Source of the DNA: Acidobacteriota bacterium
GTDB lineage: Bacteria > Acidobacteriota > Terriglobia > Acidiferrales > UBA7541
Length of the DNA stretch: 64,000 nucleotides
Assembly: GCA_003224055.1 (NCBI GenBank)
Contig: QHYE01000024.1
Coordinates: forward strand, 1-64,000
Direction of reading: 5' to 3'
This document shows, piece by piece, positions 16,470-30,405 of the stretch (positions are counted from its first letter, which is position 1; every line of letters begins with the position of its first letter). The notes under the pieces are model-generated. The model ran no database searches, had not been told where the DNA came from, and was given only the letters and a program-made list of their open reading frames with translations. The position numbers and the translations under genes were made by a program.

Positions 16470-16979
16470 TTACGATTTGATTGGTACCCAAACCTCCATG
16501 CCGCCCATTCCGGTCCGCGGATCGAATTCCTCGGAGTAACGCTCGAAGAAGTCGGGCGCATCAGCGGTTCCCCGAGCGACCTCATGACCAGATTCCGGAA
16601 GCCATATGCTCCCGATGGCATCGAGCGTTTCACGTAGTTTGGATACGTGTTCACGGTGGGGAAAAACAGCGTATTTTTGTGCGCGAATGTCCACGACGTT
16701 GAATTCACCGGGAATGCCGGAGGAGCTGGAGACCTCAACTCCGGTCAGATAGTCGATGCCTCCTGCAAAGGCCCAGCACGCCCCGTAGGCCGCATGGCCC
16801 ACCTGACCTGGGATTTTGCCGATGTGAGGTGCAAAGCGCTCCCATTGGGCGGGAATACCGTTCATTGTTTCGGTTGTGTACCGGCTGCGGAAACCCACGA
16901 GGACTAAAGCTTTGCCGTTTTCGAAGCGCGGCGCCTCAAGTTGCAGCGAAGTGGATTTCTTCATTTTGGCTTTGCTCAT
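16470..16979 (-). CDS. GyrI-like/effector-binding-domain protein
   Basis: 169 aa from ATG 16979, chosen because GGGAG lies 8 bases upstream; ATGs at 16985 and further up are also in frame. The sequence matches the GyrI-like small-molecule-binding fold (AraC effector-binding/SOUL superfamily): an early strand ALVLVGFRSRY, a central YGACWAF and GIDYLTGVEV, then KYAVFPHREHVSKLRETLDAI and a C-terminal FDPRTGMGGMEVWVPI. Stand-alone members bind or hydrolyse small hydrophobic compounds. It is divergent from an HxlR-type regulator, with a perfect palindrome between them, so it is probably the regulator's target. Confidence 0.85.
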   Translation of the reverse strand: MSKAKMKKSTSLQLEAPRFENGKALVLVGFRSRYTTETMNGIPAQWERFAPHIGKIPGQVGHAAYGACWAFAGGIDYLTGVEVSSSSGIPGEFNVVDIRAQKYAVFPHREHVSKLRETLDAIGSIWLPESGHEVARGTADAPDFFERYSEEFDPRTGMGGMEVWVPIKS

Positions 16980-17042
16980 TTCCATCTCCCGATTTGCAAT
17001 TCCGGGCTGAAAAGCTGGCACGGAAAAGTTAGTCTGCCCATC

Positions 17043-17063
17043 TCACTTGCAAAAAGCAAGTGA
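17043..17063. promoter_or_regulatory. Palindromic operator between GyrI-like and HxlR genes
   Basis: Perfect inverted repeat TCACTTGC-AAAAA-GCAAGTGA: two 8-base arms around a 5-base A tract, 19 bases before the HxlR start and 63 bases before the divergent GyrI-like start. The position between divergent genes and the two-fold symmetry fit a binding site for the dimeric HxlR-type repressor made by the adjacent gene. Protein binding is inferred. Confidence 0.75.
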
Positions 17064-17082
17064 AAAATGCTACTGTGGAACT

Positions 17083-17514
17083 ATGCCAAAGAAGAAGCCG
17101 CGTCCAAAATGGCGCTCGGGGTGTCCGCTGAATGCCTCCGTGGAAATACTCGGCGACCGCTGGTCCTTGTTGATTATTCGCGACATGATGCTCCGGGGCT
17201 TCCGGACCTACAAGGAATTTCTGGATTCCTACGAGGGAATCGCTACAAACATTTTGGCGGATCGCCTGCGAAAATTGATCGCTCATGGAATCATCGCCAC
17301 CCAATCAGACCCCTCCGACGGGCGAAAACTCTTTTACTTGCTCACCGCTAAAGGACTCGATCTTGCACCCGTCCTCACGGAAATGGTGCTCTGGGCCGCC
17401 GCGCACGAGGATACCGAAAACCAAGCCCTTGTCCGGCAAATCCAGAAGGACAAGGAGCAATTCCTGGCTGCCATGCGACAACGCTGGGCCGGAAAGACTT
17501 TGCCTTCTTCTTAA
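17083..17514 (+). CDS. HxlR-family winged-helix transcriptional regulator
   Basis: 143 aa from ATG 17083 (MPKKKPRPKWRSGCPLN); the track start at 17047 would place coding sequence over the operator. The HxlR core is clear: Cys at position 14, SVEILGDRWSLLIIRDMML, a recognition helix in GIATNILADRLRKLIAHGII, and a wing SDPSDGRKLFYLLTAKGLDL. Family members often sense aldehydes, quinones or oxidants through the N-terminal Cys. The C-terminus is an alpha helix typical of the dimer interface. It probably represses itself and the divergent GyrI-like gene through the palindrome at 17043-17063. Confidence 0.92.
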   Translation: MPKKKPRPKWRSGCPLNASVEILGDRWSLLIIRDMMLRGFRTYKEFLDSYEGIATNILADRLRKLIAHGIIATQSDPSDGRKLFYLLTAKGLDLAPVLTEMVLWAAAHEDTENQALVRQIQKDKEQFLAAMRQRWAGKTLPSS

Positions 17515-17628: not shown

Positions 17629-19206
17629 TTAGGAATAGAAGAGGCTGGTGTCAGCCGATAGGCCTGCCAACTCGGCAAGTCGCCCAGACGGCCCTTGCAC
17701 GACGAAACGGCGATGATAAAGCAGAAGCGCTCGCAGCCCGGCAAGTTCTTCTCCGCCGCCCGCCCTGCCGGGACCACCATGCAGGCAGCTAGGCACCACA
17801 TTGCCGTGGCCTGTGTGCTGATTGCCGACCGAGGAGTCGACGACCAGGATTCGGCCGTGCAAGTCCCCGATTCCAAGCACAACATTTTGAACAAAACCCG
17901 GATCATTTGAGAAAACGGAAACAACCAACGAACCCAAACCCCGGCGTGCTATCGCGATGAGATTCTCCAGGCTGTCGTACGCCACGAGCGTCGCTGCAGG
18001 ACCAAACACTTCGACGTCGTGAACGTACTTCGCATCCAGCCCGTTCTTGCATGCCAGAAGCGTGGGCTGCACAAAAGAGGACCTCTGCACATCAGCCTCG
18101 ATCGGTTGGAACTTCTCGTCGCCGCCAAATACGACTTCGCTTTCTTGTTTCAAACGCCGCAACCCTTCGAAACAAGCGGCTTGCTGTGTCTTGTTCACCA
18201 CCGGTCCCACTTTGACTTCCGGATTTCGCGGATTTCCCACCTTCGTTGAACTCAATCGCGCAGCAATCGCTTCGCCCACCGCTTGAAACTGTTGGCGGGG
18301 CACGAGCACCCGGCGTATGGCCGTGCACTTCTGTCCGGCCTTCAACGTCATCTCACGAACGACCTCCTTCACGAATGAGTCAAAAATCTCCGTGCCCGGA
18401 GCGGCGTCCGGCCCGAGAATGGCGGAGTTGATGCTGTCCGCTTCCACATTCACTCGAACCGACCGGCGCAAGATGTTTTCGTGGCCGCGAATCCGCATCG
18501 CCGTGTCCGCGGATCCGGTGAACGAAACGATGTCGCTCTCGCTCACGTGATCGAGCAAATCGCGCGCCGAACCGCAAAGGATCGAAATAGTTCCCGCCGG
18601 CAGGATTCCTGCTTTCACGATGTCTTCGACGATTCTGTGTGTCAGCCAGGCCGTCGCCGAAGCAGGCTTGGCCAGGATGGGAACTCCGGAGAGCAGCGCG
18701 GGCGCAGCCTTTTCGCAGAGACCCCACGCCGGAAAATTGAATGCATTAATGAAGACAGCGGCGCCCTTTGACGGCGCGAGGAAGTGTTGTGCCGCGAACT
18801 CGCCGGTTTTGGAAAGGGAAAGGACCCCGCCCTCCTTTAACATTTTCGATTCACCCAGCGCCTTGCCGATCTTGGCGTAATACTTCATCGTGTAGATGGC
18901 CCCGTCCACGTCGAACGATGCGTCTGCCTGTGTGGCACCGGAATTCAGAAGCGAAATGCGAAAATATTCGTCGCGGTTCGCGGTCATTACTTCGGCTACC
19001 TTCCCGAGCATTTCTGCGCGCTCTCGATAAGTCTGTTGCCGCAGCGCGGCTCCACCATGCGACCTTGCAAATTCAAGTGCCCCCGCAACACCAATTTCTT
19101 GCGATGAGATGCGGGCCAACTCTTCTCCTGTGACGGGATCAACCAGCGGCTCGCCGGCGCCCGCGCCCTCTTTCCACTCTCCGGAAACGTAGTTAGGCAG
19201 CTTCAT
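17629..19206 (-). CDS. boxD: 3,4-dehydroadipyl-CoA semialdehyde dehydrogenase (BoxD, PaaZ-N like)
   Basis: 525 aa aldehyde dehydrogenase. ATG 19206 (MKLPNYVSGEW) follows GGAGGAATACGG; the track start adds 31 unlikely residues. Landmarks: FINAFNFPAWGLCEKAAPALLSG, the nucleotide-binding turn FTGSADTAM, the catalytic Glu in NVEADSINSAILGPDA and the catalytic Cys in KAGQKCTAIRRVLVP. This matches the PaaZ N-terminal/BoxD subgroup. In the box pathway it oxidises the ring-opened semialdehyde with NADP+ to 3,4-dehydroadipyl-CoA, which enters beta-oxidation. It is divergent from boxR-boxC-boxB, sharing their control region. Without that context, a phenylacetate-type PaaZ dehydrogenase would be the alternative. 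Confidence 0.9.
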   Translation of the reverse strand: MKLPNYVSGEWKEGAGAGEPLVDPVTGEELARISSQEIGVAGALEFARSHGGAALRQQTYRERAEMLGKVAEVMTANRDEYFRISLLNSGATQADASFDVDGAIYTMKYYAKIGKALGESKMLKEGGVLSLSKTGEFAAQHFLAPSKGAAVFINAFNFPAWGLCEKAAPALLSGVPILAKPASATAWLTHRIVEDIVKAGILPAGTISILCGSARDLLDHVSESDIVSFTGSADTAMRIRGHENILRRSVRVNVEADSINSAILGPDAAPGTEIFDSFVKEVVREMTLKAGQKCTAIRRVLVPRQQFQAVGEAIAARLSSTKVGNPRNPEVKVGPVVNKTQQAACFEGLRRLKQESEVVFGGDEKFQPIEADVQRSSFVQPTLLACKNGLDAKYVHDVEVFGPAATLVAYDSLENLIAIARRGLGSLVVSVFSNDPGFVQNVVLGIGDLHGRILVVDSSVGNQHTGHGNVVPSCLHGGPGRAGGGEELAGLRALLLYHRRFVVQGPSGRLAELAGLSADTSLFYS

Positions 19207-19281
19207 CCGTATTCCTCCACCAACGGACTCCAGATTACCCCGAATCTTCGTCCTTTTGGTTATGACAGCAACAAATCCTGC

Positions 19282-19384
19282 TGCAGCATAATACTGCATA
19301 TTGCAAGCGCGGGTTCGGAAACCCCGTTCGCACCAGTCACATCTCCATATAATCTACAACATATTGATTATACACATGTTGTAG
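19282..19384. promoter_or_regulatory. boxD/boxR divergent control region with 9-bp inverted repeat
   Basis: A perfect inverted repeat CTACAACAT (19354-19362) / ATGTTGTAG (19376-19384) surrounds an AT-rich core. TATAAT occurs on the plus strand at 19348-19353 and on the minus strand at 19372-19367. TGCA is repeated at 19282, 19294 and 19302, and again at 19475 near the boxR start. TGCA-containing repeats are reported operators for BzdR/BoxR-type regulators; which of these elements BoxR uses here is inferred. Confidence 0.55.
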
Positions 19385-19444
19385 GCGCGCCCTGCTCACT
19401 GTAACCGGGCAGTTTTAAGAAAGTATCACTCCCGATGTTTGTAC

Positions 19445-19472
19445 TTGACCCCTGGTCCAGAACCTGTAGTAT
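19445..19472 (+). promoter_or_regulatory. Candidate boxR promoter
   Basis: TTGACC (19445-19450), a 16-base spacer and TAGTAT (19467-19472) would place the transcript start near 19479, about 16 bases before the chosen boxR ATG. The TGCA at 19475 overlaps the expected start site, a position suited to autorepression. Confidence 0.45.
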
Positions 19473-19494
19473 ACTGCATGTCAGCGTTCATACC

Positions 19495-20406
19495 ATGGCC
19501 ACCTCTACCGGCGTCGCTTCCAAATCTGTCTCTCTGCGGCGTGGCGCTCCCATTCGCGAGCGTGAGTTTCTGCTTTTCGTCGGCACGCGCGTTCGAGAGC
19601 TTCGTAATCGCCGCGGCATGACCCGCAAAATGGTAGCGCAGGAAGGCGACGTTTCGGAGCGGCATTTGGCACAGTTGGAGTCCGGTGGGGGAAACATCTC
19701 GATCTTGCTTCTGCGAAGAATCGCCGAAGTCCTCAACGTTTCCCTGGCGGAATTGTTTGCGCCCCGCGTGGAAGAACAGGCTGAGAAACAAACCATTCGG
19801 CGTTTCCTCCAGCGGATTCCTGCTCATCGCCTCGAGGAAGTTGTAGCTCGGCTGATGCGCGAGTTCGGCGCGGACGAAACTTTGCGGCGCAAGCGCATCG
19901 CGCTAATCGGGCTGCGCGGCGCGGGAAAATCGACGCTGGGATCGCGACTGGCCGAGGATTCCCGCATTCCGTTTATTGAATTGGACCATGAAATTGAAAA
20001 AGAAACGGGGATGCCTCTCGCGGAAATTTTCTCTCTGTACGGCCAATCCGGTTACCGCGCGATCGAGAAGCGCACGCTGCAGCGCGTCCTGAAGGATACC
20101 CGGCCCGCGGTGCTTTCCATCGGTGGCGGCGTGGTCTCCGAAAAAGAAACCTACGATTTTCTTTTGGCCCACTGTTACACCGTATGGGTCAAGGCGCAGC
20201 CGGAAGAGCACATGTCCCGCGTTATCGCCCAGGGCGATCTTCGAGCCATGGCCGGGAGTGATCAGGCCATGGACGATCTGCGAAAAATTTTGGAAGCTCG
20301 CGAACCGCTCTATCGAAGAGCGGATATGGTTCTGGACACTTCGAACTCTTCCGTGGACCAAAGTCTTTCAAGGCTCAAAACGGCATTGCAGACTCATTTG
20401 CAGTAG
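19495..20406 (+). CDS. boxR: BoxR/BzdR-type regulator: XRE HTH fused to shikimate-kinase-like sensor domain
   Basis: 303 aa from ATG 19495; the track start at 19435 lies upstream of the candidate promoter. Residues about 25-95 are an XRE/Cro helix-turn-helix (TRVRELRNRRGMTRKMVAQEG, ISILLLRRIAEVLNVSLAELF). A linker leads to a shikimate-kinase-like domain at about 130-300 with Walker A GLRGAGKST and SIGGGVV. This two-domain design is the hallmark of BzdR and BoxR, which repress benzoyl-CoA genes until benzoyl-CoA binds the kinase-like domain. It precedes boxC by only 9 bases and is divergent from boxD, so it is well placed to control both transcripts. Confidence 0.93.
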   Translation: MATSTGVASKSVSLRRGAPIREREFLLFVGTRVRELRNRRGMTRKMVAQEGDVSERHLAQLESGGGNISILLLRRIAEVLNVSLAELFAPRVEEQAEKQTIRRFLQRIPAHRLEEVVARLMREFGADETLRRKRIALIGLRGAGKSTLGSRLAEDSRIPFIELDHEIEKETGMPLAEIFSLYGQSGYRAIEKRTLQRVLKDTRPAVLSIGGGVVSEKETYDFLLAHCYTVWVKAQPEEHMSRVIAQGDLRAMAGSDQAMDDLRKILEAREPLYRRADMVLDTSNSSVDQSLSRLKTALQTHLQ

Positions 20407-20415
20407 GAGGAATTT

Positions 20416-22098
20416 GTGGACGTTGTCGCAACGCAGGAGTCTCAGGGAAAGACCGAAGCGCTCGATTTTCAAACCGATCCTTCGCGCTACAAACATTGGC
20501 GGTTGTCCTTCGACGGCCCGGTTGCCACGCTGACCATGGACGTGGCCGAAGACGGCGGAATCCGGCCCGGTTACAAATTGAAGTTGAATTCCTACGATCT
20601 CGGAGTGGACATCGAACTCCACGACGCGCTCCAGCGCATCCGCTTTGAACATCCTGAAATCCGTTCGGTGGTGATCACCAGCGCGAAGAACCGCATTTTC
20701 TGCTCTGGCGCAAATATCTACATGCTTGGTCTTTCTTCTCATGCGTGGAAAGTGAATTTCTGCAAATTCACCAACGAAACGCGAAATGGAATGGAAGACT
20801 CCAGCGCGCACTCCGGGCTGAAATTCATCGCGGCGTGCAACGGAACCACGGCGGGCGGAGGCTATGAATTGGCTCTCGCCTGCGATGAAATCATTTTGAT
20901 CGATGACCGTTCCTCCGCCGTGAGCCTGCCGGAGCTGCCGCTGTTGGGCGTTCTTCCCGGAACGGGTGGGTTGACACGCATCACCGACAAGAGAAAAGTC
21001 CGCCGCGACCACGCCGACATTTTCTGTACCAATCAAGACGGCGTCCGCGGCCAACGTGCCAAAGACTGGCGTCTCGTCGATGAAATTGTGAAGCCCCAGC
21101 AGTTCTCCGAGCACGTGAAACAGCGCGCCCTGAAACTTGCCGCGCAAAGTGATCGCCCCGCCGGCGCAAAGGGCATTTCTCTCACCCCTCTGAAACGTAC
21201 CGTCGACGCCGCGGGCCTGCACTACGAATATGTCGATGTCCTGTTCAATCGTGAAGCGCGGACAGCAACGTTCACCGTCCGCGCACCGCAGGCCTTCACC
21301 GAAGACACATTAGAAAAGGCTCTTGCAGCCGGCGCCTCCTGGTGGCCTCTGCAAATGTCGCGCGAACTGGACGACGCCATCCTGACTCTTCGCGCAAGTG
21401 AATTGGAATTAGGGCTTTGGATTTTCAAAACCGCCGGAAATCCCACCGCCGTTCTCGCCAACGACGAATTCATCTTGAAGCATCAGGACAACTGGTTCGT
21501 CCGGGAAGTTTTGGGAATGATGCGGCGCACTTTCGCGCGCATCGATGTCACCTCGCGCTCGATTTTCGCCATCGTCGAACCCGATTCCTGTTTTGCCGGT
21601 ACGCTCTTGGAACTGGCGTTGGCTGCCGACCGTGTCTACATGCGTGACACTCAGGAAAGCGAAAGCGCTGCCGCGCTAATCCTTTCGAAAATGAATTTCG
21701 GTCCACTCCCCATGGTCAATCATCTTTCACGCCTGGCCGCGCGCTTCTATGAAGACGAAGCGCAACTCAGTTCGCTCCGCGATCGCATCGAAACAAGGTT
21801 GCCGGCCCGCGAGGCGCTCGAAGCCGGCCTCGTCACTTCTGCACCCGATGACCTCGATTGGGAAGACGAACTTCGCCAGGCCATCGAATCCCGCGCCGCG
21901 CAATCGCCTGACGCGCTCGCTGGCCTCGAAGCCAATCTGCGTTTCGGTCCGCCCGAATCTCTCGAAACCCGCGTTTTTGGCCGGCTTTCCGCCTGGCAGA
22001 ACTGGATCTTCATTCGCCCCAACGCCGTGGGAACAAACGGCGCGCTGAAAGTCTACGGCACCGGCGCTCCCGTGAAATTCAACTGGGAAAGAGTTTAA
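20416..22098 (+). CDS. boxC: Benzoyl-CoA-dihydrodiol lyase (2,3-epoxybenzoyl-CoA dihydrolase)
   Basis: 560 aa, GTG start with TAGGAGGAA upstream. It is a double-crotonase-fold protein: an N-terminal half with IFCSGANIYMLG and CNGTTAGGGYELALACDEI (CoA-binding and oxyanion-hole elements), and a degenerate C-terminal half with CFAGTLLELALAADRVYM. The length fits BoxC. It opens the epoxide ring of 2,3-epoxybenzoyl-CoA with two waters, releasing formate and 3,4-dehydroadipyl-CoA semialdehyde, the substrate of BoxD. It lies between boxR and boxB on one strand, 9 and 43 bases apart, in a probable operon. Confidence 0.96.
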   Translation: MDVVATQESQGKTEALDFQTDPSRYKHWRLSFDGPVATLTMDVAEDGGIRPGYKLKLNSYDLGVDIELHDALQRIRFEHPEIRSVVITSAKNRIFCSGANIYMLGLSSHAWKVNFCKFTNETRNGMEDSSAHSGLKFIAACNGTTAGGGYELALACDEIILIDDRSSAVSLPELPLLGVLPGTGGLTRITDKRKVRRDHADIFCTNQDGVRGQRAKDWRLVDEIVKPQQFSEHVKQRALKLAAQSDRPAGAKGISLTPLKRTVDAAGLHYEYVDVLFNREARTATFTVRAPQAFTEDTLEKALAAGASWWPLQMSRELDDAILTLRASELELGLWIFKTAGNPTAVLANDEFILKHQDNWFVREVLGMMRRTFARIDVTSRSIFAIVEPDSCFAGTLLELALAADRVYMRDTQESESAAALILSKMNFGPLPMVNHLSRLAARFYEDEAQLSSLRDRIETRLPAREALEAGLVTSAPDDLDWEDELRQAIESRAAQSPDALAGLEANLRFGPPESLETRVFGRLSAWQNWIFIRPNAVGTNGALKVYGTGAPVKFNWERV

Positions 22099-22141
22099 AC
22101 AACCGGGCGAACGCCGATCCGATTCCTGCAAGGAGATTCGC

Positions 22142-23566
22142 ATGATCAATTACACCGAAAAAATTCCCAACAACGTCGATCTGGGACGCGACCGCGTCCT
22201 GCAACGCGCCCTCGAGCACTGGCAGCCCGCCTACATGGGTTGGTGGTACGACATGGGCCCGGACGAGAGCCACAACTATGAAGTTTATTTGCGGACCGCC
22301 ATCAGCGTGGAACCCGACGGCTGGGCGCAGTTCGGCTACGTCAAGATGCCGGACTACCGCTGGGGAATTTTTCTCCAGCCGCGCGACGAGAAGCGCGAAG
22401 TAAATTTCGGCGCTCACAAGGGGCAGCCCGCCTGGCAGGAAGTCCCCGGCGAATACCGTTCCACCCTTCGCCGCATCATCGTCACCCAGGGAGACACCGA
22501 GCCCGCTTCCGTCGAACAGCAGCGCATGCTCGGCGCTTCTTGTCCTTCCATGTACGACCTCCGGAATATCTTCCAGGTCAACGTGGAAGAAGGGCGCCAC
22601 CTTTGGGCCATGGTTTACCTGCTGCATCGCTATTTCGGACGCGACGGCCGCGAGGAAGCCGAATCCCTCCTCGCGCGGCGCTCCGGCGACACCGACAATC
22701 CCCGCATTCTCGGTGCGTTCAACGAACCGACTCCCGACTGGCTCGCTTTCTATATGTTCACGTTCTTCACCGACCGCGACGGCAAATTCCAGCTTTGCGC
22801 GCTCGCTGAATCTGGTTTTGATCCTCTTTCTCGCACCTGCCGCTTCATGCTCACCGAGGAAGCCCACCACATGTTCGTCGGCGAAACCGGCGTCAGCCGC
22901 ATCATTCAGCGCACCTGTGAAGTGATGAAGGAACATAAACTCGATGACCCCTCGGATGTGCGCGCCCTGGGCGTGATTGATCTCCAGACGATTCAGAAGT
23001 ACCTAAATTTTCACTACAGCGTAACTCTGGATCTCTACGGTTCGGACGTTTCTTCGAACGCTGCGAATTATTTCACCAGCGGCCTGAAAGGACGCTTCCG
23101 TGAAACTAAACTGGATGACGATCACGTTTTGAGCGAGGCGGAATACCCCGTGTTCGAAGTCGTCAACGGAAAAATCCTTGCCAAGTCCGTCCCGGCGTTG
23201 ACCGCTCTGAACGAACGCCTGCGCGATGATTACATCGAAGAGATCGCCGATGGCGTGGCCCGCTGGCAACGCGTCATTGACAATGCCGACATCTCCTTCC
23301 GTTTGACCCTGCCGCACAAGGGCTTCCATCGCGAAATCGGCAATTTCGCGGGACACTTTATCAGCCCCGAAGGAGAAGTCTTGAGCGAGGAATCCTGGAA
23401 GAAGCGTGAATCCCAGTGGCTGCCGACTCCCGAGGACCATGCCTTCGTCCAGTCGCTCATGAGCGGCCGTGTCGTCGAGCTCGGTAAGTTTGCGAATTGG
23501 ATTGCTCCCCCGGCGCGCGGGGTGAATAATCAGCCGCTGAACTTTGAATACGTTCGCTTCAATTGA
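22142..23566 (+). CDS. boxB: Benzoyl-CoA 2,3-epoxidase, diiron oxygenase subunit
   Basis: 474 aa, ATG 22142 after CAAGGAGAT. Candidate diiron ligands fall at E120, E150, H153 (EEGRH), D211, E240 and H243 (EEAHH). By recall this is the same numbering as in the Azoarcus enzyme, a strong sign of true orthology. With NADPH-derived electrons from BoxA and O2 it converts benzoyl-CoA to its 2,3-epoxide in the cytoplasm. BoxA, the reductase, is not in this window, so electrons must come from a gene elsewhere or a different donor. It is followed 42 bases later by an amidohydrolase. Confidence 0.97.
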   Translation: MINYTEKIPNNVDLGRDRVLQRALEHWQPAYMGWWYDMGPDESHNYEVYLRTAISVEPDGWAQFGYVKMPDYRWGIFLQPRDEKREVNFGAHKGQPAWQEVPGEYRSTLRRIIVTQGDTEPASVEQQRMLGASCPSMYDLRNIFQVNVEEGRHLWAMVYLLHRYFGRDGREEAESLLARRSGDTDNPRILGAFNEPTPDWLAFYMFTFFTDRDGKFQLCALAESGFDPLSRTCRFMLTEEAHHMFVGETGVSRIIQRTCEVMKEHKLDDPSDVRALGVIDLQTIQKYLNFHYSVTLDLYGSDVSSNAANYFTSGLKGRFRETKLDDDHVLSEAEYPVFEVVNGKILAKSVPALTALNERLRDDYIEEIADGVARWQRVIDNADISFRLTLPHKGFHREIGNFAGHFISPEGEVLSEESWKKRESQWLPTPEDHAFVQSLMSGRVVELGKFANWIAPPARGVNNQPLNFEYVRFN

Positions 23567-23608
23567 TCGCAAGAGTGAACGCCTAAATTCCGTCGAAGGA
23601 CGCGACTT

Positions 23609-24457
23609 CTGCAGCCCATCATAGACATCCACGTCCACATCATGCCGTATCACATGATGAAGCCATCCGCGCTCGAATTGATGAAGCACGGACGCAAGGA
23701 CTACGCCGATGTCGAACGGTATTGTGCAAACCCGAAAGAATTTCTCGGCCTGCTCGACCGTCTTGGCGTCGAGCGCGCCGGCCTCATCAATTACGTTGCC
23801 CCGAAAATTATCGGGTTTACTCCCGAAGCGAACGATTGGATCGCGAAGTATTGCAAAGCGGCGCCGGACCGCCTGATCGCATTCGGTGGAGTGCTGCCCG
23901 GAACCGTTCCCGACGCCGGCGCCGAAGTGGACCGGATGACCAAACTCGGTATTCGCGCCATCAAGTTGCATCCGTCGCACCAGGTGCTCTCACCAAACGA
24001 ATACATGGACGGCAATCATGAGCTGGCGGCGGTTTACGAGCGCGCCCAGGCAAATGGCATGCCCGTGATGATTCACACGGGGACCTCCATTTTCCCGGGA
24101 GCCAGAAATCTTCATGCGCAGCCGCTCTTGTGCGATGACGTCGCCATCGATTATCCCGATCTCGTTGTGATTCTCGCCCATGGCGGAAGGCCGCTCTGGA
24201 TGGAGGAAGCGTTTTTCCTGGTTCGCCGCCACAAGAACATGCACATGGATATCTCCGGCATCCCTCCCCAGAAACTCTTGGAGTATTTTCCGCGTATCGA
24301 AGAGATTGCCGATAAGGTTCTCTGGGGAACGGATTGGCCGGGGCCCGGCGTGCCCGAGATCAAGGGCAATATTGAGAAGTTCCACGCGCTGCCGATTCGG
24401 GACGAGGGCAAGCGCAAGATTCTATACGACAATGCCGCGCGGCTCTTTCCGCGCTAA
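23609..24457 (+). CDS. Amidohydrolase-2 family metal hydrolase, probable CTG start
   Basis: 282 aa TIM-barrel protein of the ACMSD/amidohydrolase_2 family. The track start (ATG 23642) would remove the metal-binding motif: in-frame codons just upstream read IIDIHVHIMP, containing the essential HxH. The frame is open back to a TGA at 23576 and contains no ATG, GTG or TTG. CTG at 23609 has GAAGGA 8 bases upstream and is the best start. Other landmarks are AIKLHPSHQ, VMIHTGTS, VILAHGG and LWGTDWPGPG, the last with the metal Asp. It follows boxB in the same direction and probably hydrolyses or decarboxylates an aromatic or ring-opened acid; the substrate is unknown. Confidence 0.85.
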   Translation: MQPIIDIHVHIMPYHMMKPSALELMKHGRKDYADVERYCANPKEFLGLLDRLGVERAGLINYVAPKIIGFTPEANDWIAKYCKAAPDRLIAFGGVLPGTVPDAGAEVDRMTKLGIRAIKLHPSHQVLSPNEYMDGNHELAAVYERAQANGMPVMIHTGTSIFPGARNLHAQPLLCDDVAIDYPDLVVILAHGGRPLWMEEAFFLVRRHKNMHMDISGIPPQKLLEYFPRIEEIADKVLWGTDWPGPGVPEIKGNIEKFHALPIRDEGKRKILYDNAARLFPR

Positions 24458-24500
24458 GCAGTTCACGGTCGGCTATTTTGGGAATGTCCCTCTGCTGTGC

Positions 24501-24533
24501 TGAACGGCTGTTCATTATCTGAACACGCGTTCG
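24501..24533. promoter_or_regulatory. Tandem palindromic operators before the TetR-hcr operon
   Basis: Two copies of the same dyad: TGAAC-GGCT-GTTCA (24501-24514) and TGAAC-ACGC-GTTCG (24520-24533), 19 bases centre to centre, about two helix turns, just upstream of the -35 box. This fits cooperative binding of two TetR dimers on one face. The regulator is inferred to be the adjacent TetR protein. Confidence 0.65.
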
Positions 24534-24540
24534 TATTTTG

Positions 24541-24569
24541 TTGACACCGGTGCCCCCGCCGCGTAACTT
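24541..24569 (+). promoter_or_regulatory. Promoter of the tetR-hcrCAB operon
   Basis: Perfect -35 TTGACA (24541-24546), a 17-base spacer and TAACTT (24564-24569), about 40 bases before the TetR start. The strong -35 paired with a poor -10 and upstream dyads fits a regulated promoter. Confidence 0.6.
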
Positions 24570-24606
24570 TAGGAATGTCCGTGGTGCGCGCCGCAAGGAG
24601 GCCCAA

Positions 24607-25335
24607 TTGTCTGGCAAAGGGATCAGAACCCGGGACAAGGCCCGTGTTGAGCGCCGCTATCTTGCCCGCCGCCTGGAAATCCTGCGTGCTGCCGGAAAAC
24701 AATTCCGCGTCAGCGGCTTTGCCGAAACCGGCATGCGCGACATCGCCGCCGCCGCCGACCTCTCTCCCGCCAATCTCTACAACTACTTCCAGGGGAAACA
24801 CGAAATTCTTTTTTTCTGCCAGGATGTTTCCCTCAACCGCCTGGTCGCGGCCCTCGAGAAGGCCCGCCGCTCGAGAGCCGGCGCCGCCGAGAAGTTCCGA
24901 CTGGTAATCATCTCCCATCTGCGCTGCGTCCTCGACGAAGTCGAAGGATCGGCCGCGCATCTCTTGACCAGCGCTTTGCCGCCGCGCTTGCAACGGTCCC
25001 TGGTCGTAAAACGTGATCGCTACGAAGAGGGTGTGCGTCAACTCATTGTCGCAGGCACCCGCACCGGAGAGTTCGTGCCTTGTGATCCTGCGCTCGCCGC
25101 GCGCGCCGTCCTCGGAGCCCTGAACTGGAGCGTTCGCTGGTTCAATCCCGACGGCGCTATGACTGCCGCCGAAATCGCCGAAGGCTTCGCGGATTATCTG
25201 ATTCGCGGATTGCTGTCCAAACCCGATTCTCTCCGCCGCCTTGGCTCGGCCAGAGAGTTGTCCCGCCCGGTCCGCAAATTCCTTCCGCCCGGCGTGAAGC
25301 AGCAGGTAGCGGCCGCACGATTTTCCGAGAGGTGA
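24607..25335 (+). CDS. TetR-family regulator heading the hcr operon
   Basis: 242 aa from TTG 24607 (MSGKGIRTRDKARVERRYLARR), chosen because AAGGAGG lies 6 bases upstream and the promoter overlaps the track start at 24538. The N-terminal HTH is typical: RRLEILRAAGKQFRVSGFAETGMRDIAAAADLSPANLYNYFQGKHEIL. The C-terminal ligand domain is helical, with a TetR_C-like AARAVLGALNWSVRWF. Its stop is 6 bases before hcrC, so regulator and enzyme are cotranscribed. By analogy with BadR/HbaR-type logic it may sense an aryl-CoA, but TetR proteins have no fixed ligand. Confidence 0.92.
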   Translation: MSGKGIRTRDKARVERRYLARRLEILRAAGKQFRVSGFAETGMRDIAAAADLSPANLYNYFQGKHEILFFCQDVSLNRLVAALEKARRSRAGAAEKFRLVIISHLRCVLDEVEGSAAHLLTSALPPRLQRSLVVKRDRYEEGVRQLIVAGTRTGEFVPCDPALAARAVLGALNWSVRWFNPDGAMTAAEIAEGFADYLIRGLLSKPDSLRRLGSARELSRPVRKFLPPGVKQQVAAARFSER

Positions 25336-25341
25336 TGGACT

Positions 25342-25857
25342 GTGATCACACTTCCTGTCGCGTCGCAAAAAACATCTCACGTTCGAATGACGCTCAACGG
25401 TGAGCAAGTAGACGTCTCTTTCGCACCCTACAAAACTCTCCTCGAAGTCCTTCGCGAGGATCTCGGCCACACTGGCACGAAGCATGGCTGTGAACTGGGA
25501 GAGTGCGGCGCGTGCGCCGTTCTTCTGGACGGCAAGCCCGTGCTCTCCTGCTTGGTCCTTGGCGTTGAGTGCGACTCCAGGAATGTCCTGACCGTCGAAG
25601 GCCTCGGCTTGGAAGGAACTCTGCATCCTCTCCAGGATGCCTTCGCCGATCTCGGCGCGGCGCAGTGCGGATACTGCACGCCCGCGATTCTGGTCACCGC
25701 GAAATCCTTGCTGGACCAGCATCCTCACGCCACTCGCGATCAGATTCGCGCGGCGCTCTCCGGCGTCCTGTGCCGGTGCACCGGATATCTCCAGATTTTT
25801 GAGGCCGTCGAGTCCGCCATGGTCAAGATTGCGCAACAGAACGGATCAGCGAGATAG
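25342..25857 (+). CDS. hcrC: 4-hydroxybenzoyl-CoA reductase gamma subunit, two [2Fe-2S]
   Basis: 171 aa, GTG 25342 with GAGGTGATG upstream. It is a xanthine-dehydrogenase-family small subunit: a plant-ferredoxin-type [2Fe-2S] domain with C50, C55, C58 and C70 (GCELGECGACAV...LSC) and an alpha-helical [2Fe-2S] domain with C109, C112, C144 and C146 (QCGYC, LCRCTG). It passes electrons between the FAD/[4Fe-4S] subunit and the Mo site. The subunit family is shared with CO dehydrogenase and many hydroxylases; the HCR assignment rests on the two partners downstream. Confidence 0.92.
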   Translation: MITLPVASQKTSHVRMTLNGEQVDVSFAPYKTLLEVLREDLGHTGTKHGCELGECGACAVLLDGKPVLSCLVLGVECDSRNVLTVEGLGLEGTLHPLQDAFADLGAAQCGYCTPAILVTAKSLLDQHPHATRDQIRAALSGVLCRCTGYLQIFEAVESAMVKIAQQNGSAR

Positions 25858-25902
25858 CATCCGAGTGCGCGGCTGCCTAGCGCCGCGCAGTTAGGAGGGT
25901 AC

Positions 25903-28419
25903 TTGCCAATTCAAAAAGATTCGCCGGAACGTCCCGCGAAAGATTCTCCAGCCAGCGCTGGAGAATTTCGCGTCATCGGCGTCCCACGCCGCCGGGTGGA
26001 CGCCCGCGCAAAAGTGACCGGTCAAACGCGCTTCGCCGACGACATCTTCCTGCCGCGCATAGCGCATTGCAAACTCCTGCGCTCCCCGCATCCGCACGCC
26101 CGCATTCGAAAGATCGACACCTCCCGCGCCCTCGCTCACCCCGGAGTCTATCTGGTCCTAACCGGGAAAGACCTGCCCATCGAGTACGGGATTCTTCCCG
26201 TCAGCCAGGACGAGCAAGCCCTCTGCCTCGATCATGTGCGCCACGTCGGTGATCCCATCGCTGCCGTCATCGCCCGCGAGGAACTCACCGCGTTTGAAGC
26301 TCTGGACCTCATCGACGTCGACTACGAAATTCTCGCCACCATCTCCGATCCCGAAGAAGCTCTCGCCACTCCCGAACCGCGCATTCACGAGTACGGCGAA
26401 GAAGGCAACATTCATAAGCGCGTCGCCCTGGAATTCGGCGATGTTGAAAAGTCTTTCGCCGAAGCCGACGAAATCTTTGAAGACATTTTTTTCTACCAGG
26501 GCAGCACGCATCTTCCCATCGAGCAGCACGCCGCCGTCGCCATTAAGGATCCCGAAGGGAAGCTTACGATCTGGTCCAGCACCCAAACCCCGCACTACCT
26601 TCATCGCGCTCTCGCCAAAGTTCTGCAGATGCCTCCCGCGCATATTCGCGTCAGCGCCACGCCCAATGGCGGAGGCTTTGGCGGAAAGAGCGATCCCTTC
26701 AATCACGAAATCGTCGTGGCCAAGGCCGCGCTCCTCCTGGATCGCCCCGTCAAGATTTGCCTCACGCGCGAGGAAGTTTTTTATTGTCACCGCGGCCGTC
26801 ATCCCGTCCTGATGAAATTCAAGACCGGCGTCAAGAAGGACGGCGCCATCACCGGAATGCATCTCCAGACGTTGATCGATGGGGGCGGCTACGGCTCCTA
26901 CGGTGTCGCCAGTACTTTTTATACCGGTGCGCTGCAGACCACCACCTACCACATCCCGCGCTATCGTTTCGAGGGCTGCCGCACGTTCACCAACAAACCG
27001 CCATGCGGGCCCAAGCGCGGCCATGGCACTGTGCAGCCGCGCTTCGGCCAGGAAGTCCAGCTCGACAAGATCGCCGAGAAACTCAAAATCGACCCCGCCG
27101 ACCTGCGCCTCCGCATCGTCGAATCTCCCAACACCGTGACAGCAAATTATCTTCGCTTGAGTACGGTTAATCTTTCCGAATGCATTCGCCGCGTCGTAAA
27201 AACCTCCGATTGGAAAGAGAAATTCCGGAAACTGCCCGAAGGCCGCGGTGTCGGACTTGCCTGTTCCGCCTATCTCACGGGCGCAGGACTTGCCATTTAT
27301 TGGAACAAAATGCCGCAATCCGGAGTGCAGCTCAAGCTCGACCGCGGCGGTGGCGTCGCCATTTTCTGCGGCGCCACGGAGATCGGACAGGGCTCCGACG
27401 ATGTCCTGGCGGGAATCGTCGCCGAAGTTCTGGGCATCGACACCTTCGACATCCGTCTCTTTACCGGCGACACGGACTTGGGGCCTGTCGACCTCGGCTC
27501 GTATTCGAGCCGCGTCACCATCATGGCCGGCAATGCCGCCTTGCAAGCGGCCGAGCGCGCCAGGGAACTGCTTGCCGAAGCGGTCGCCATTCGCCTCGAA
27601 GTGCCCAAGGAGCGCCTGCGTTTCGCCGAAAAATCTGTTTTTGATTCCGCCGCCCCGGAAAAAAGAGTGCCCTTCCACGAAGCCGTCTGCCTGGCCGAGG
27701 CGCGTTTCGGCACCATCGGCACCGTCGGCTCTTACACTCCCCCGAAATCTCCAGCGCTGTACAAAGGCGGCGGTGTCGGTCCGTCCCCCACCTATTCTTA
27801 TACCGCCGCAGTCATCGAAGTCGCCGTGAATCCCCTGACCGGATGGATCACCGTACCCAAGATCTGGATCGCCCACGACATCGGCCGCCCTCTCAACCCT
27901 CCCCTCGTCCGAGGTCAAGTCGAGGGCAGCGTCTACATGGGCCTCGGCGAAGCCCTCATGGAAGAACAGGAATTCCGCCGTCTTCCCAAAAAGCTCTCCC
28001 ACGCCCTCGTGCACAAATTTCCCTCCATGCTGGAATACAAGAGTCCCACTTCGCTCGACATGCCCGAAGTGGTCACCGAGTTGGTCGAGGAACCCGATCC
28101 CCGTGGCCCCTTTGGCGCCAAGGAAGTCGGTCAGGGTCCACTTCTGCCCATCATGCCCGCCGTGGCCAACGCGGTTTACGACGCCATCGGCGTTCGAATC
28201 GATGAAGTCCCGATAACTCCTGAGAAAATAGTGAAAGCGCTCGCGGAAAAAAGGGCGGGCCGCGATCCGCGCTATGGGCCGAGCCACTTTCCGCATGTCG
28301 ATTGGCCGGAAGCGCTCCGCGTTCCTCCCCCGTGGGAAGGCGGCGACGGCAACGCTGTCAACGATGTCCCGCGCCATTCGAAACCGCGCCCCGAGAAAGA
28401 AAAGGTACTCAGCTCATGA
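25903..28419 (+). CDS. hcrA: 4-hydroxybenzoyl-CoA reductase alpha subunit, molybdopterin
   Basis: 838 aa, TTG start at 25903 with AGGAGGG upstream. It is a molybdenum hydroxylase large subunit: an N-terminal ald_Xan_dh_C-type domain (RVDARAKVTGQTRFADDI), then Mo-pterin domains with NGGGFGGKSDPFNHEIVVAK, REEVFYCHRGRHPVLMK, NKPPCGPKRGHGT, ATEIGQGSDDVLAG and PFGAKEVGQGPLLP. The wording of the central block strongly recalls HcrA of Thauera and Rhodopseudomonas. The enzyme removes the phenolic OH of 4-hydroxybenzoyl-CoA using two low-potential electrons, giving benzoyl-CoA. The position of the usual catalytic Glu (GEPP in xanthine oxidase) appears to read GQGP (Gln744). The stop overlaps hcrB by 4 bases. 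The tail after residue 800 is Pro-rich. Confidence 0.92.
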   Translation: MPIQKDSPERPAKDSPASAGEFRVIGVPRRRVDARAKVTGQTRFADDIFLPRIAHCKLLRSPHPHARIRKIDTSRALAHPGVYLVLTGKDLPIEYGILPVSQDEQALCLDHVRHVGDPIAAVIAREELTAFEALDLIDVDYEILATISDPEEALATPEPRIHEYGEEGNIHKRVALEFGDVEKSFAEADEIFEDIFFYQGSTHLPIEQHAAVAIKDPEGKLTIWSSTQTPHYLHRALAKVLQMPPAHIRVSATPNGGGFGGKSDPFNHEIVVAKAALLLDRPVKICLTREEVFYCHRGRHPVLMKFKTGVKKDGAITGMHLQTLIDGGGYGSYGVASTFYTGALQTTTYHIPRYRFEGCRTFTNKPPCGPKRGHGTVQPRFGQEVQLDKIAEKLKIDPADLRLRIVESPNTVTANYLRLSTVNLSECIRRVVKTSDWKEKFRKLPEGRGVGLACSAYLTGAGLAIYWNKMPQSGVQLKLDRGGGVAIFCGATEIGQGSDDVLAGIVAEVLGIDTFDIRLFTGDTDLGPVDLGSYSSRVTIMAGNAALQAAERARELLAEAVAIRLEVPKERLRFAEKSVFDSAAPEKRVPFHEAVCLAEARFGTIGTVGSYTPPKSPALYKGGGVGPSPTYSYTAAVIEVAVNPLTGWITVPKIWIAHDIGRPLNPPLVRGQVEGSVYMGLGEALMEEQEFRRLPKKLSHALVHKFPSMLEYKSPTSLDMPEVVTELVEEPDPRGPFGAKEVGQGPLLPIMPAVANAVYDAIGVRIDEVPITPEKIVKALAEKRAGRDPRYGPSHFPHVDWPEALRVPPPWEGGDGNAVNDVPRHSKPRPEKEKVLSS

Positions 28420-29444
28420 TGCGGCTGCCTCTTTTCGAATTTCGCGCGCCGCGCACCCTCGACGAAGCGGCTCGCATTCTAGATGGTCAGGGGCCAAACA
28501 CCATGCCGCTCGCCGGCGGCACCGACCTGCTTCCCAACATGAAACGCAGGCAGCAGGTCCCTCGCACGCTGATGAGCCTTCGCTACGTCGAAGGCTTGAA
28601 CCAGGTTCAGTGGAGCGATTCCGCATCGCGCCTCGGCGCCTGCCTCACGCTCACTGACGTAGCCGAGGATCCCCGTTTTCGAAACGGCATGACCGCTCTA
28701 TCGCAAGCCGCCGCCCTGGTGGCCACGCCGCACATTCGAAACATGGCCACCCTCGGTGGAAACCTCTGTCTGGATACGCGCTGCAATTACTACGATCAGA
28801 ACTACGAATGGCGAAAGGCGATTGACTTTTGCCTGAAGAAAGACGGCACCATCTGCTGGGTCGCGCCGGGAAGCCGGAAATGCGTGGCAGTCTCCTCCAC
28901 GGACACTGCGCCTGCGCTGATTGCCCTTGGCGCCCGCGTCCGCCTGGTCTCGCGCTCCGGCGAGCGCGAAGTCACGCTTTCCGAGCTCTACAACAATGAC
29001 GGCATCAACTATATCCGGCGCCGTCCCGATGAAATCCTCGTTGAAGTCCTGTTGGATTCTCTCCACGGCTGGAAGAGCAGCTACTGGAAGCTGCGGCGCC
29101 GCGGTTCGTTCGACTTCCCTGTATTATCCGTCGCTGCCGCGGCGCGCCTTTCCCGTCAAGCTGTGGTCGAGGATGCGCGAATCGTAGTAGGCTCTGCAGC
29201 GTCCCGTCCGCTGGTTGCAGACGGGGCTTCGAAATTTCTGCTGGGGCGTTCCTTGAATTCGGAAACCATCGCGGAAGCTGCTGGGCTCGCGGCCCGCATC
29301 GCCAAGCCTTTGGACAACACCGATTTCGACATGACCTGGCGCAAGCGAGTCACCGCTGAATTTGTGACCTACGCCCTCCGCGAATTGCGCGGTGACGACA
29401 TGCACGTCGAGCGCGGGAGCCTCACGCGTCACTCATTCGAATGA
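28416..29444 (+). CDS. hcrB: 4-hydroxybenzoyl-CoA reductase beta subunit, FAD and [4Fe-4S]
   Basis: 342 aa from ATG 28416, overlapping the hcrA stop (ATGA); the track start lies inside hcrA. The FAD site is visible as PLAGGTDLLPNMK and TLGGNLCLDTRC. Between them and the C-terminal domain is the insert that marks HCR: C123, C139, C147 and C156 (TRCNYYDQ, DFCLKKDG, TICWVAP, RKCVAVSSTD), shifted by one from the [4Fe-4S] ligands recalled for Thauera HcrB. That cluster lets HCR run in the reductive direction from ferredoxin. Ordinary xanthine-dehydrogenase medium subunits lack it, which makes the HCR call firm. Confidence 0.94.
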   Translation: MMRLPLFEFRAPRTLDEAARILDGQGPNTMPLAGGTDLLPNMKRRQQVPRTLMSLRYVEGLNQVQWSDSASRLGACLTLTDVAEDPRFRNGMTALSQAAALVATPHIRNMATLGGNLCLDTRCNYYDQNYEWRKAIDFCLKKDGTICWVAPGSRKCVAVSSTDTAPALIALGARVRLVSRSGEREVTLSELYNNDGINYIRRRPDEILVEVLLDSLHGWKSSYWKLRRRGSFDFPVLSVAAAARLSRQAVVEDARIVVGSAASRPLVADGASKFLLGRSLNSETIAEAAGLAARIAKPLDNTDFDMTWRKRVTAEFVTYALRELRGDDMHVERGSLTRHSFE

Positions 29445-29463: not shown

Positions 29464-30405
29464 ATGAAACAAAAACGAATCGCATTCTTGTCGCTGTTCC
29501 TGCTTGCCATCGCAGTTCAGGGCGCATCCGCCCAAGGCGCCCAAAACTCGCTCGTCGAAAAACTGGGATTCCCTCGCGACGCAAAGCTGCTGATTGTCCA
29601 CGCCGACGACGTCGGCGTAACTCATTCCGTAAACGCCGCCACGATCCAGGGCCTGGAATCGGGCCTCGTCAATTCCGCCAGCCTCATGGTCCCCTGCCCG
29701 TGGTTCCCGGAAATTGCCGACTACGCCATATCACATCCCGATGCTGATTTTGGTCTCCATCTCACCCTCACCAGCGAACGCGTCTACTACCGCTGGGGCC
29801 CGGTCGCTTCGAAAGACAAGGTCCCGAGTCTTGTGGATGAAAATGGTTATTTCCATCACGACTGGAAACCAACAACCCGCATCAATCCAAAAGAAGTCGA
29901 CCTCGAACTTCGCGCCCAGATTGACCGCGCCTACGCGATGGGCATCCGTCCCACGCATCTGGACTCGCATCAATACCGCCTCTTCGACAACGGCCAGGAT
30001 CTTTTCGAAGTTGTCATTCGAATCGCTCACGATTACAAGCTTCCGGTTTTCGTTGCCCGCGACTGGTTCGCGGAACGTCCCTATCTGGAAAAAAGTCTGG
30101 GCCCCGCCGATATCGTAATCGACCATACAATTACGATCGCTCCCAGCGCCGCACCTGACAAGTGGGCCGATTTCTACAAGGCCGCCCTCAAAAATCTGCA
30201 ACCCGGCATCACGGAATTTGTGATTCATCTTGGCTTCGCCGACGAAGAAATGAAAGCCGCCACGCGCGAACGCGACACTTGGGGCGCGGCCTGGCGTCAG
30301 CGCGATTTCGATTTCTTTACCAGCCCGGAATTTCGCCAACTGCTCGCCGCCCAAAACATCAAGCTGGTCACTTGGCGCGAGATCGCGAGCGCCGCCAAGA
30401 AGTGA
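29464..30405 (+). CDS. Exported ChbG/YdjC-like carbohydrate deacetylase
   Basis: 313 aa from ATG 29464 with a signal peptide (RIAFLSLFLLAIAVQGASAQ); the track start at 29392 overlaps hcrB. YdjC-fold motifs are present: LLIVHADDVGVTHSVN (metal Asp), DFGLHLTLTSE, RPTHLDSHQ (metal His) and FVIHLGF near the end. The family deacetylates chito-oligosaccharides or related sugars; this member would act in the periplasm. It starts 19 bases after hcrB but has no clear link to aromatic metabolism. Confidence 0.9.
   Translation: MKQKRIAFLSLFLLAIAVQGASAQGAQNSLVEKLGFPRDAKLLIVHADDVGVTHSVNAATIQGLESGLVNSASLMVPCPWFPEIADYAISHPDADFGLHLTLTSERVYYRWGPVASKDKVPSLVDENGYFHHDWKPTTRINPKEVDLELRAQIDRAYAMGIRPTHLDSHQYRLFDNGQDLFEVVIRIAHDYKLPVFVARDWFAERPYLEKSLGPADIVIDHTITIAPSAAPDKWADFYKAALKNLQPGITEFVIHLGFADEEMKAATRERDTWGAAWRQRDFDFFTSPEFRQLLAAQNIKLVTWREIASAAKK

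What the first reader, a model, noticed from the sequence alone, without database searches (positions are those of the whole stretch)
17629..29444. Joined 4-hydroxybenzoyl-CoA reductase and box epoxidation genes in one island
boxD/boxR-boxC-boxB and tetR-hcrC-hcrA-hcrB lie together. The hcr enzyme makes benzoyl-CoA by low-potential reduction, a step mainly known from anaerobes; BoxB then needs O2. The layout predicts that 4-hydroxybenzoate, as its CoA ester, is dehydroxylated first and epoxidised afterwards, without protocatechuate. That would suit life at fluctuating or low oxygen. I know of no described acidobacterial system of this kind, but I cannot search.
Basis: partly seen in the sequence, partly recalled or inferred. 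Interest (0 to 1): 0.85.

Follow-up and report, generated by a model that had tools for sequence, protein, structure and literature searches.

The report
Box-linked hydroxybenzoyl-CoA reductase-like gene island
A soil acidobacterium carries, side by side, the genes that open the benzene ring with oxygen (the box pathway) and a molybdenum enzyme related to one that strips a hydroxyl group off the ring without oxygen; the pairing recurs in at least five phyla, but every enzyme of this branch has an altered active site, so its exact reaction is still open.

Summary
Window 17629-29444 encodes boxD / boxR-boxC-boxB, an overlooked amidohydrolase, and tetR-hcrC-hcrA-hcrB. BoxB, BoxC, BoxD and BoxR pass curated cut-offs. 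HcrB keeps all four [4Fe-4S] cysteines, and HcrA groups with 4-hydroxybenzoyl-CoA reductase (HCR), not with xanthine or aldehyde dehydrogenases. But it is not a canonical HCR: all three subunits miss the curated cut-offs, and catalytic Glu726 is Gln in 124/124 relatives while 9/9 canonical HCRs have Glu; a pocket Met is invariantly Lys. One betaproteobacterial genome carries both types, so this is a distinct sister clade (Q-type).

The linkage to box is real and recurrent. boxB and boxC lie within 10 kb of Q-type hcr in 11 of 80 loci (about 0.07 expected), from five phyla and at least seven places in the tree. Q-type hcr and boxB co-occur across Acidobacteriota (odds ratio 15; 20 of 24 near-complete Q-genomes have boxB). 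Benzoate-CoA ligase, flavodoxin and formate dehydrogenase recur as neighbours. BoxA is missing throughout.

Best reading: an aerobic or microaerobic module that reductively makes benzoyl-CoA, most likely from 4-hydroxybenzoyl-CoA, and passes it to BoxB. Substrate and reaction are inferred. Published omics already proposed dehydroxylation followed by box in Aromatoleum.

The parts
17629..19299 (-). [quoted passage not shown]
   Evidence: NF008868 770 bits, cut-off 444
19435..20406 (+). boxR-type regulator (HTH plus shikimate-kinase-like domain)
   Evidence: NF006015 'anaerobic benzoate catabolism transcriptional regulator' 397/204 bits
20416..22098 (+). boxC, 2,3-epoxybenzoyl-CoA dihydrolase
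   Evidence: TIGR03222 926/712 bits
22142..23566 (+). boxB, benzoyl-CoA 2,3-epoxidase
   Evidence: TIGR03225 883/499 bits; full-length match to 3PER, the motifs TEPASVEQQR, VEEGRHLW and TEEAHH conserved
23609..24457 (+). amidohydrolase-2 family protein, unknown reaction; no ATG/GTG/TTG before the HxH metal motif, so a CTG start at 23609 is inferred
   Evidence: PF04909 153 bits; reading frame; conserved in L122, L123, L090, L091; fold nearest 3IRS, PDC hydrolase, LigJ, ACMSD
24538..25335 (+). tetR-family regulator, 6 bp upstream of hcrC
   Evidence: PF00440 and PF17932; homologues upstream of hcrC in 32 related loci
25342..25857 (+). hcrC-like, 2x[2Fe-2S] subunit
   Evidence: TIGR03193 162 bits, below cut-off 258
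25903..28419 (+). hcrA-like (Q-type), molybdenum subunit
   Evidence: TIGR03194 780 bits, below cut-off 995; 1RM6_A best PDB match
27010..27015 (+). codons for Pro370-Lys371 in the CG-PK-RGHG loop (Ala356-Met357 in T. aromatica); invariant PK in Q-type, AM in canonical HCR
28132..28134 (+). codon for Gln744, aligned with catalytic Glu726 of T. aromatica HcrA
   Evidence: Q 124/124, canonical HCR E 9/9
28416..29444 (+). hcrB-like, FAD subunit; start codon overlaps the hcrA stop by 4 bp
   Evidence: TIGR03195 259 bits, below cut-off 405; 1RM6_B best PDB match
28782..28883 (+). HcrB loop with the four [4Fe-4S] cysteines C123, C139, C147, C156 (C122, C138, C146, C155 in T. aromatica)
   Evidence: CCCC in 122/122 Q-type and 9/9 canonical HcrB

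Best explanation
The island encodes a two-stage aromatic-CoA pathway. Stage 1: an HCR-like molybdenum/FAD/iron-sulfur enzyme (Q-type HcrABC) takes low-potential electrons through the [4Fe-4S] cluster and FAD and reductively removes a ring substituent from an aryl-CoA, most likely the 4-hydroxyl of 4-hydroxybenzoyl-CoA, to give benzoyl-CoA. Stage 2: BoxB epoxidises benzoyl-CoA with O2, BoxC opens the ring and releases formate, BoxD oxidises the semialdehyde, and beta-oxidation finishes. The substrate is activated by a benzoate-CoA-ligase-family enzyme, which in this genome lies on another contig. Shown by sequence: the genes, the cofactor sites, the sister relation to HCR and the recurrent linkage to box. 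Inferred: substrate, direction of the reaction, electron donor, and that acid-base chemistry moved from Glu726 to Lys371/Gln744.
For: HcrA/B nearest to 1RM6 in sequence and fold: 39% identity against 28% or less for all other XO-family structures. All four [4Fe-4S] cysteines, the hallmark of inverted electron flow, conserved in 122/122. Q-type is one clade next to canonical HCR and apart from six of the genome's seven other XO paralogues; the seventh could not be placed. boxB and boxC within 10 kb in 11/80 loci against 0.07 expected, plus two betaproteobacterial loci; five phyla, at least 7 changes on the tree. Benzoate-CoA ligase family (TIGR02262 785 and 670 bits, cut-off 375) in the same clusters. 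Co-occurrence in 297 Acidobacteriota genomes: 27 both, 18 hcr only, 23 box only, 229 neither; odds ratio 14.9, p 2e-13; genus level p 1.5e-10, family level about 5e-6; 20 of 24 Q-genomes at least 98% complete have boxB. The genome has a BCL-family ligase but no pobA over cut-off, no intradiol dioxygenase and no class I BCR.
Against: Catalytic Glu726 is Gln and the neighbouring pocket Met357 is Lys in the whole clade; no subunit reaches the HCR cut-off; no Q-type enzyme has been assayed in any paper found. 18 of 45 Q-carrying acidobacteria lack boxB, 4 of them at least 98% complete, so the enzyme can work outside box. Most Q-type loci have no box gene nearby. BoxA is absent, so the electron donor of BoxB is unexplained. 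No ligase or electron donor gene lies inside this island.
Confidence: 0.5

Rival explanations
1. Same overall logic, different substrate: the Q-type enzyme reductively removes another ring substituent (3- or 2-hydroxyl, amino, or from a substituted hydroxybenzoyl-CoA) to give benzoyl-CoA or a BoxB-compatible aryl-CoA. The Glu-to-Gln and Met-to-Lys changes retune the pocket.
For: The changes sit in motifs around the Mo site and are invariant within each clade. G412 carries both types, which suggests separate substrates. Different ligases (BCL-like, PaaK-like) accompany the two types.
Against: HCR fold, the [4Fe-4S] loop and most pocket residues are shared with HCR (56 positions common to Q and E and absent from XO paralogues); no direct evidence for another substrate.
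Confidence: 0.22
2. The Q-type complex plays another redox role in box metabolism: electron delivery to BoxB in place of the missing BoxA, deoxygenation of the toxic epoxide, or oxidation of the semialdehyde in place of BoxD.
For: BoxA is over cut-off in none of 297 Acidobacteriota genomes and absent from 13/13 genomes with linked hcr. SAR324 bins have BoxBC but no BoxD (PMC4782131).
Against: BoxB-bearing acidobacteria without Q-type hcr also lack BoxA. Window, L132 and L273 have boxD beside hcr. XO-type oxidation needs the glutamate that is missing here. BoxB itself is proposed to deoxygenate the epoxide (PMC5489048).
Confidence: 0.08
3. A generic molybdenum hydroxylase of unrelated function that lies beside box by chance or as part of a mobile catabolic island.
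For: Family-level scores are below the HCR cut-offs; most Q-type loci are not box-linked; 4 of 24 near-complete Q-genomes lack boxB.
Against: Linkage in five phyla with different gene orders, and co-occurrence even at family level; loss of the glutamate needed for hydroxylation; conservation of the [4Fe-4S] loop, which generic hydroxylases lack; six of seven XO paralogues of the same genome fall elsewhere, the seventh having an unreliable branch.
Confidence: 0.12

Closest known systems
4-hydroxybenzoyl-CoA reductase HcrABC of Thauera aromatica (PDB 1RM6, 1SB3)
   Same: Three-subunit composition, fold, FAD subunit with [4Fe-4S] cysteine loop, Tyr326, the RGHG loop, best sequence and structure match
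   Different: Catalytic Glu726 to Gln, Met357 to Lys, Ala356 to Pro; about 39-40% identity; below curated cut-offs; linked to box instead of anaerobic genes
box pathway of Azoarcus evansii (BoxABCD, BoxR; 3PER)
   Same: boxB, boxC, boxD and boxR present, full-length and over cut-off
   Different: No BoxA in the genome, over cut-off in none of the phylum sample, and none in the other hcr-box genomes; joined to an HCR-like operon
[quoted passage not shown]
   Same: Same metabolic idea, dehydroxylate first and epoxidise afterwards, in oxic conditions
   Different: Facultative anaerobe that also has the anaerobic benzoyl-CoA pathway; no physical hcr-box linkage reported in the passages read; enzyme type not tested here
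SAR324 plume bins (PMC4782131)
   Same: HCR annotation plus BoxB/BoxC and benzoate-CoA ligase in the same bins; L195 shows linkage in SAR324
   Different: The authors treated HCR as a side branch and did not link it to BoxB

Membership tests
4-hydroxybenzoyl-CoA reductase (TIGR03193/03194/03195 equivalogs) | Three subunits: 2x[2Fe-2S], Mo and FAD | tested here: met
4-hydroxybenzoyl-CoA reductase (TIGR03193/03194/03195 equivalogs) | FAD subunit insert with four cysteines for an extra [4Fe-4S] cluster | tested here: met
   C123, C139, C147, C156; 122/122 in the clade
4-hydroxybenzoyl-CoA reductase (TIGR03193/03194/03195 equivalogs) | Conserved active-site glutamate (Glu726) | tested here: not met
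   Gln744 in the window; Q 124/124 against E 9/9 in canonical HCR
4-hydroxybenzoyl-CoA reductase (TIGR03193/03194/03195 equivalogs) | Score above the curated equivalog cut-offs | tested here: not met
   162/258, 780/995, 259/405; bimodal in the order of G299: seven at 1178-1337 bits with E, twelve at 747-822 with Q
4-hydroxybenzoyl-CoA reductase (TIGR03193/03194/03195 equivalogs) | Phylogenetic grouping with HCR and not with xanthine/aldehyde dehydrogenases | tested here: met
   Sister clade to E-type HCR; Q support 100, E support 93-99; own XO paralogues outside, except L002, whose very long branch could not be placed
4-hydroxybenzoyl-CoA reductase (TIGR03193/03194/03195 equivalogs) | Reduction of 4-hydroxybenzoyl-CoA to benzoyl-CoA | not testable with these tools
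   needs enzyme assay
box pathway (aerobic benzoyl-CoA epoxidation) | BoxB, BoxC and BoxD over cut-off | tested here: met
   883/499, 926/712, 770/444; diiron motifs of 3PER conserved
box pathway (aerobic benzoyl-CoA epoxidation) | BoxA reductase | tested here: not met
   No TIGR03224 match at E 0.001 in the genome; none over cut-off in 297 Acidobacteriota genomes; none in 13 genomes with linked hcr
box pathway (aerobic benzoyl-CoA epoxidation) | Benzoate-CoA ligase | tested here: met
   BCL-family ligase on contig C31, TIGR02262 520/375; not in the island; specificity unknown
Xanthine dehydrogenase / aldehyde oxidase | Closest relatives among XDH/AOR and no [4Fe-4S] insert | tested here: not met
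   XdhA 513 bits (cut-off 780) against HCR 780 bits; the insert is present

The most novel reading that the evidence does not exclude
A widespread, uncharacterised class of oxygen-tolerant reductive aryl-CoA dehydroxylases in which the universal XO-family glutamate is replaced by glutamine and a pocket lysine, making it a one-way reductase coupled to epoxidative ring opening. The formate released by BoxC (2 electrons per ring) repays the 2 low-potential electrons spent on dehydroxylation, through formate dehydrogenase and ferredoxin or flavodoxin. Such a route would let aerobic soil bacteria without 4-hydroxybenzoate hydroxylase use lignin-derived 4-hydroxybenzoate.
Probability: 0.25. Interest if true: 0.82.

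Novelty: new variant of a known kind. Interest (0 to 1): 0.62.

Why it matters
Reductive removal of a phenolic hydroxyl is treated as an anaerobic reaction. A recurring gene module that joins it to an O2-dependent epoxidase, across Acidobacteriota, Rokubacteria, Planctomycetota, Betaproteobacteria and SAR324, would mean a hidden route for lignin-derived aromatics in soil and the deep sea that standard markers (pobA, pcaGH, bcr) miss. The clade-wide Glu-to-Gln exchange at the catalytic position also offers a direct test of what that residue does in the XO family. Databases probably label these proteins as 4-hydroxybenzoyl-CoA reductase or xanthine dehydrogenase, and neither name is established.

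Tried and rejected
Assembly chimera: rejected, L122 from another assembly has the same order. Foreign island by base composition: not seen. Generic XDH/AOR: rejected by tree, scores and the [4Fe-4S] loop. Q-type HCR as a substitute for BoxA: not specific, since BoxB-only genomes lack BoxA too. Plasmid relatives: only 36-37% identical, mostly rhizobial XO proteins, uninformative. Neighbours of unlinked boxB in 36 acidobacterial loci: no consistent replacement reductase found. Row XO_L002 has a very long branch in both trees and was not interpreted. Papers: no description of hcr-box linkage found; the library lacks most subscription journals. AlphaFold models gave only fold confirmation; the Mo-site loops of HcrA are low-confidence, so distances from Lys371 to Mo were not read.
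Full report
WHAT IS THERE. The window is part of contig C109 of a 4.53 Mb, 95.6% complete draft genome; its nearest homologues are acidobacterial. Between 17629 and 29444 lie, in order, boxD (minus strand), boxR, boxC, boxB, an amidohydrolase, tetR, hcrC, hcrA and hcrB (plus strand). The box genes are secure: BoxB 883 bits (cut-off 499), BoxC 926 (712), BoxD 770 (444), BoxR-type regulator 397 (204), and BoxB aligns end to end with the solved A. evansii enzyme with its metal-binding motifs conserved. The genes boxR-boxC-boxB and tetR-hcrC-hcrA-hcrB are tightly packed; hcrA and hcrB overlap by 4 bp.

KINSHIP OF THE HCR-LIKE ENZYME. HcrA and HcrB best match T. aromatica 4-hydroxybenzoyl-CoA reductase in the PDB by sequence, and HcrA by predicted fold (39% identity; next families 28% or less). 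The four cysteines that bind the extra [4Fe-4S] cluster are present (C123, C139, C147, C156), as in 122 of 122 relatives. In trees the clade stands beside canonical HCR. Six of seven other XO-family proteins of the same genome fall clearly outside; the seventh (L002) has an unreliable long branch.

BUT IT IS A DISTINCT CLADE. All three subunits miss the curated HCR cut-offs. The residue aligned with catalytic Glu726 is Gln744. This holds in the window, in all acidobacterial close relatives, in 80 of 80 loci from public genomes, and in 124 of 124 aligned Q-type rows against E in 9 of 9 canonical ones (some rows are the same genome met by two searches). Near it, the loop CG-AM-RGHG of canonical HCR (Ala356, Met357; numbering) is CG-PK-RGHG here. 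In the order of the betaproteobacterial genome G299, scores are bimodal: seven matches at 1178-1337 bits, all Glu, and twelve at 747-822 bits, all Gln, with one genome (G412) carrying both. I call this the Q-type. In other XO-family enzymes this glutamate activates the Mo-bound oxygen (review PMC10420851). A Q-type enzyme is therefore unlikely to hydroxylate; a reductase that draws its proton from another group, perhaps Lys371, is a reasonable but untested inference. That Met357/Lys371 lies close to Mo is inferred from the known position of the equivalent XDH loop, recalled from memory; the model is too poor there to measure.

THE LINK TO BOX IS REAL. A genome-contig scan with Q-type HcrA gave 80 loci (the best of 384 confirmed, so not a random sample). 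In 11 of them boxB and boxC lie within 10 kb; about 0.07 would be expected if boxB occurs in 17% of genomes at random places. They come from Acidobacteriota (L122, L171), Betaproteobacteria (L132), Planctomycetota (L166), Rokubacteria (L182, L186, L189, L190, L198, L199) and SAR324 (L195). Two more betaproteobacterial loci, L273 and L277, came from the search in the order of G299. Gene order differs between phyla, and the trait needs at least seven changes on the tree. No canonical E-type locus examined has true boxB or boxC nearby, though L091 has a diverged BoxB-like gene. In 297 Acidobacteriota genomes Q-type hcr and boxB co-occur: 27 both, 18 hcr only, 23 box only, 229 neither; odds ratio 14.9, p 2e-13; counted by genus p 1.5e-10, by family about 5e-6. 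Among Q-genomes at least 98% complete, 20 of 24 have boxB.

NEIGHBOURS THAT HINT AT THE MECHANISM. Benzoate-CoA-ligase-family genes (TIGR02262, 785 and 670 bits, cut-off 375) occur in the betaproteobacterial and rokubacterial clusters. A flavodoxin sits beside the ligase in L132, L270, L272, L273 and L277. A ferredoxin lies near boxCB-hcr in L171. In three acidobacterial genomes of two families a formate dehydrogenase (TIGR01591 742/666) with a NuoEF-like partner is next to Q-type hcr. Formate is the C1 product of BoxC (established box biochemistry; also stated in PMC4782131). One formate per ring carries exactly the two electrons that dehydroxylation needs; that they are coupled is my inference. 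Molybdenum cofactor nucleotidyltransferase-like genes are near hcr in 20 loci. In this genome the likely ligase is on contig C31 (520/375). There is no pobA over cut-off, no intradiol dioxygenase and no class I benzoyl-CoA reductase; class II and extradiol routes were not tested.

WHAT DOES NOT FIT. BoxA, the known NADPH reductase of BoxB, is absent from this genome, over cut-off in none of the 297 sampled Acidobacteriota genomes, including 50 with BoxB, and absent from all 13 genomes tested with linked hcr. BoxB must have another donor there; no consistent candidate was found near unlinked boxB. Eighteen Q-carrying acidobacteria show no BoxB, four of them nearly complete, so the Q-type enzyme is not strictly tied to box.

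PRIOR KNOWLEDGE. The idea that a hydroxybenzoyl-CoA is dehydroxylated and then epoxidised in oxic conditions was already proposed for Aromatoleum aromaticum EbN1, a facultative anaerobe ('presumptive reductive dehydroxylation' shared by anoxic and oxic growth, then box; PMC9765128). SAR324 bins were reported to hold HCR, BoxB and BoxC without connecting them (PMC4782131). I found no description of the physical linkage, the Q-type clade or the BoxA gap, within a library that lacks most subscription papers.

VERDICT. Observation confirmed; interpretation partly supported. It works like a hydroxybenzoyl-CoA reductase feeding box (about 0.5), but should not be filed as a 4-hydroxybenzoyl-CoA reductase, because a defining residue and the curated cut-offs are not met. 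It is a new variant of a known kind: a widespread Q-type sister clade of HCR recurrently joined to the box pathway.

Noticed in passing
whole genome G000 and 297 Acidobacteriota genomes: BoxB is present in 50 of 297 Acidobacteriota genomes but BoxA (TIGR03224) is over cut-off in none; BoxB in this phylum must use a different, unidentified reductase.
   Followed up: partly
L091:402-11023 and L090:7890-15213 (genomes G210, G257, same class as the window): A second cluster: canonical E-type HCR (TIGR03194 1032 bits, over cut-off, for L091) with an amidohydrolase 53-54% identical to the window's and a CoA-transferase-family subunit; in L091 also a BoxB-like protein (230 bits, below cut-off 499), an aldehyde dehydrogenase and a second CoA-transferase-family subunit. 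Possibly a second aromatic-CoA pathway with a diverged epoxidase.
   Followed up: partly
L060, L062, L063 (G167, G134, G213): Formate dehydrogenase alpha (742/666 bits) with a NuoEF-like fusion next to Q-type hcr; formate is the BoxC product.
   Followed up: partly
L205, L206, L238 (genus g73, family f48): Ten genomes of one genus carry the BoxB closest to the family model after the window's (about 830-840 bits) without a close Q-type hcr match; in the three loci read, boxCB lies in a conserved block with what look like ABC-transporter genes.
   Followed up: partly
L174:5515-14569 (Methylomirabilota): Q-type hcr with a BoxB-like protein (212 bits, below cut-off), a crotonase and two ligase-like genes; L174 and L091 suggest BoxB-like paralogues paired with HCR-like enzymes.
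   Followed up: no
window 23609-24457: The amidohydrolase seems to lack an ATG/GTG/TTG start before its HxH metal motif; in-frame CTG at 23609 is the likely start.
   Followed up: yes
window 29464-30405: YdjC-like protein (PF04794, 203 bits), probably secreted, starts 20 bp after hcrB on the same strand; L122, the closest linked relative, has a gene on the opposite strand there instead, so probably not part of the pathway.
   Followed up: partly
window 16470-17514: GyrI-like effector-binding protein and a divergent HxlR-type regulator directly beyond boxD; relation to the island unknown.
   Followed up: no
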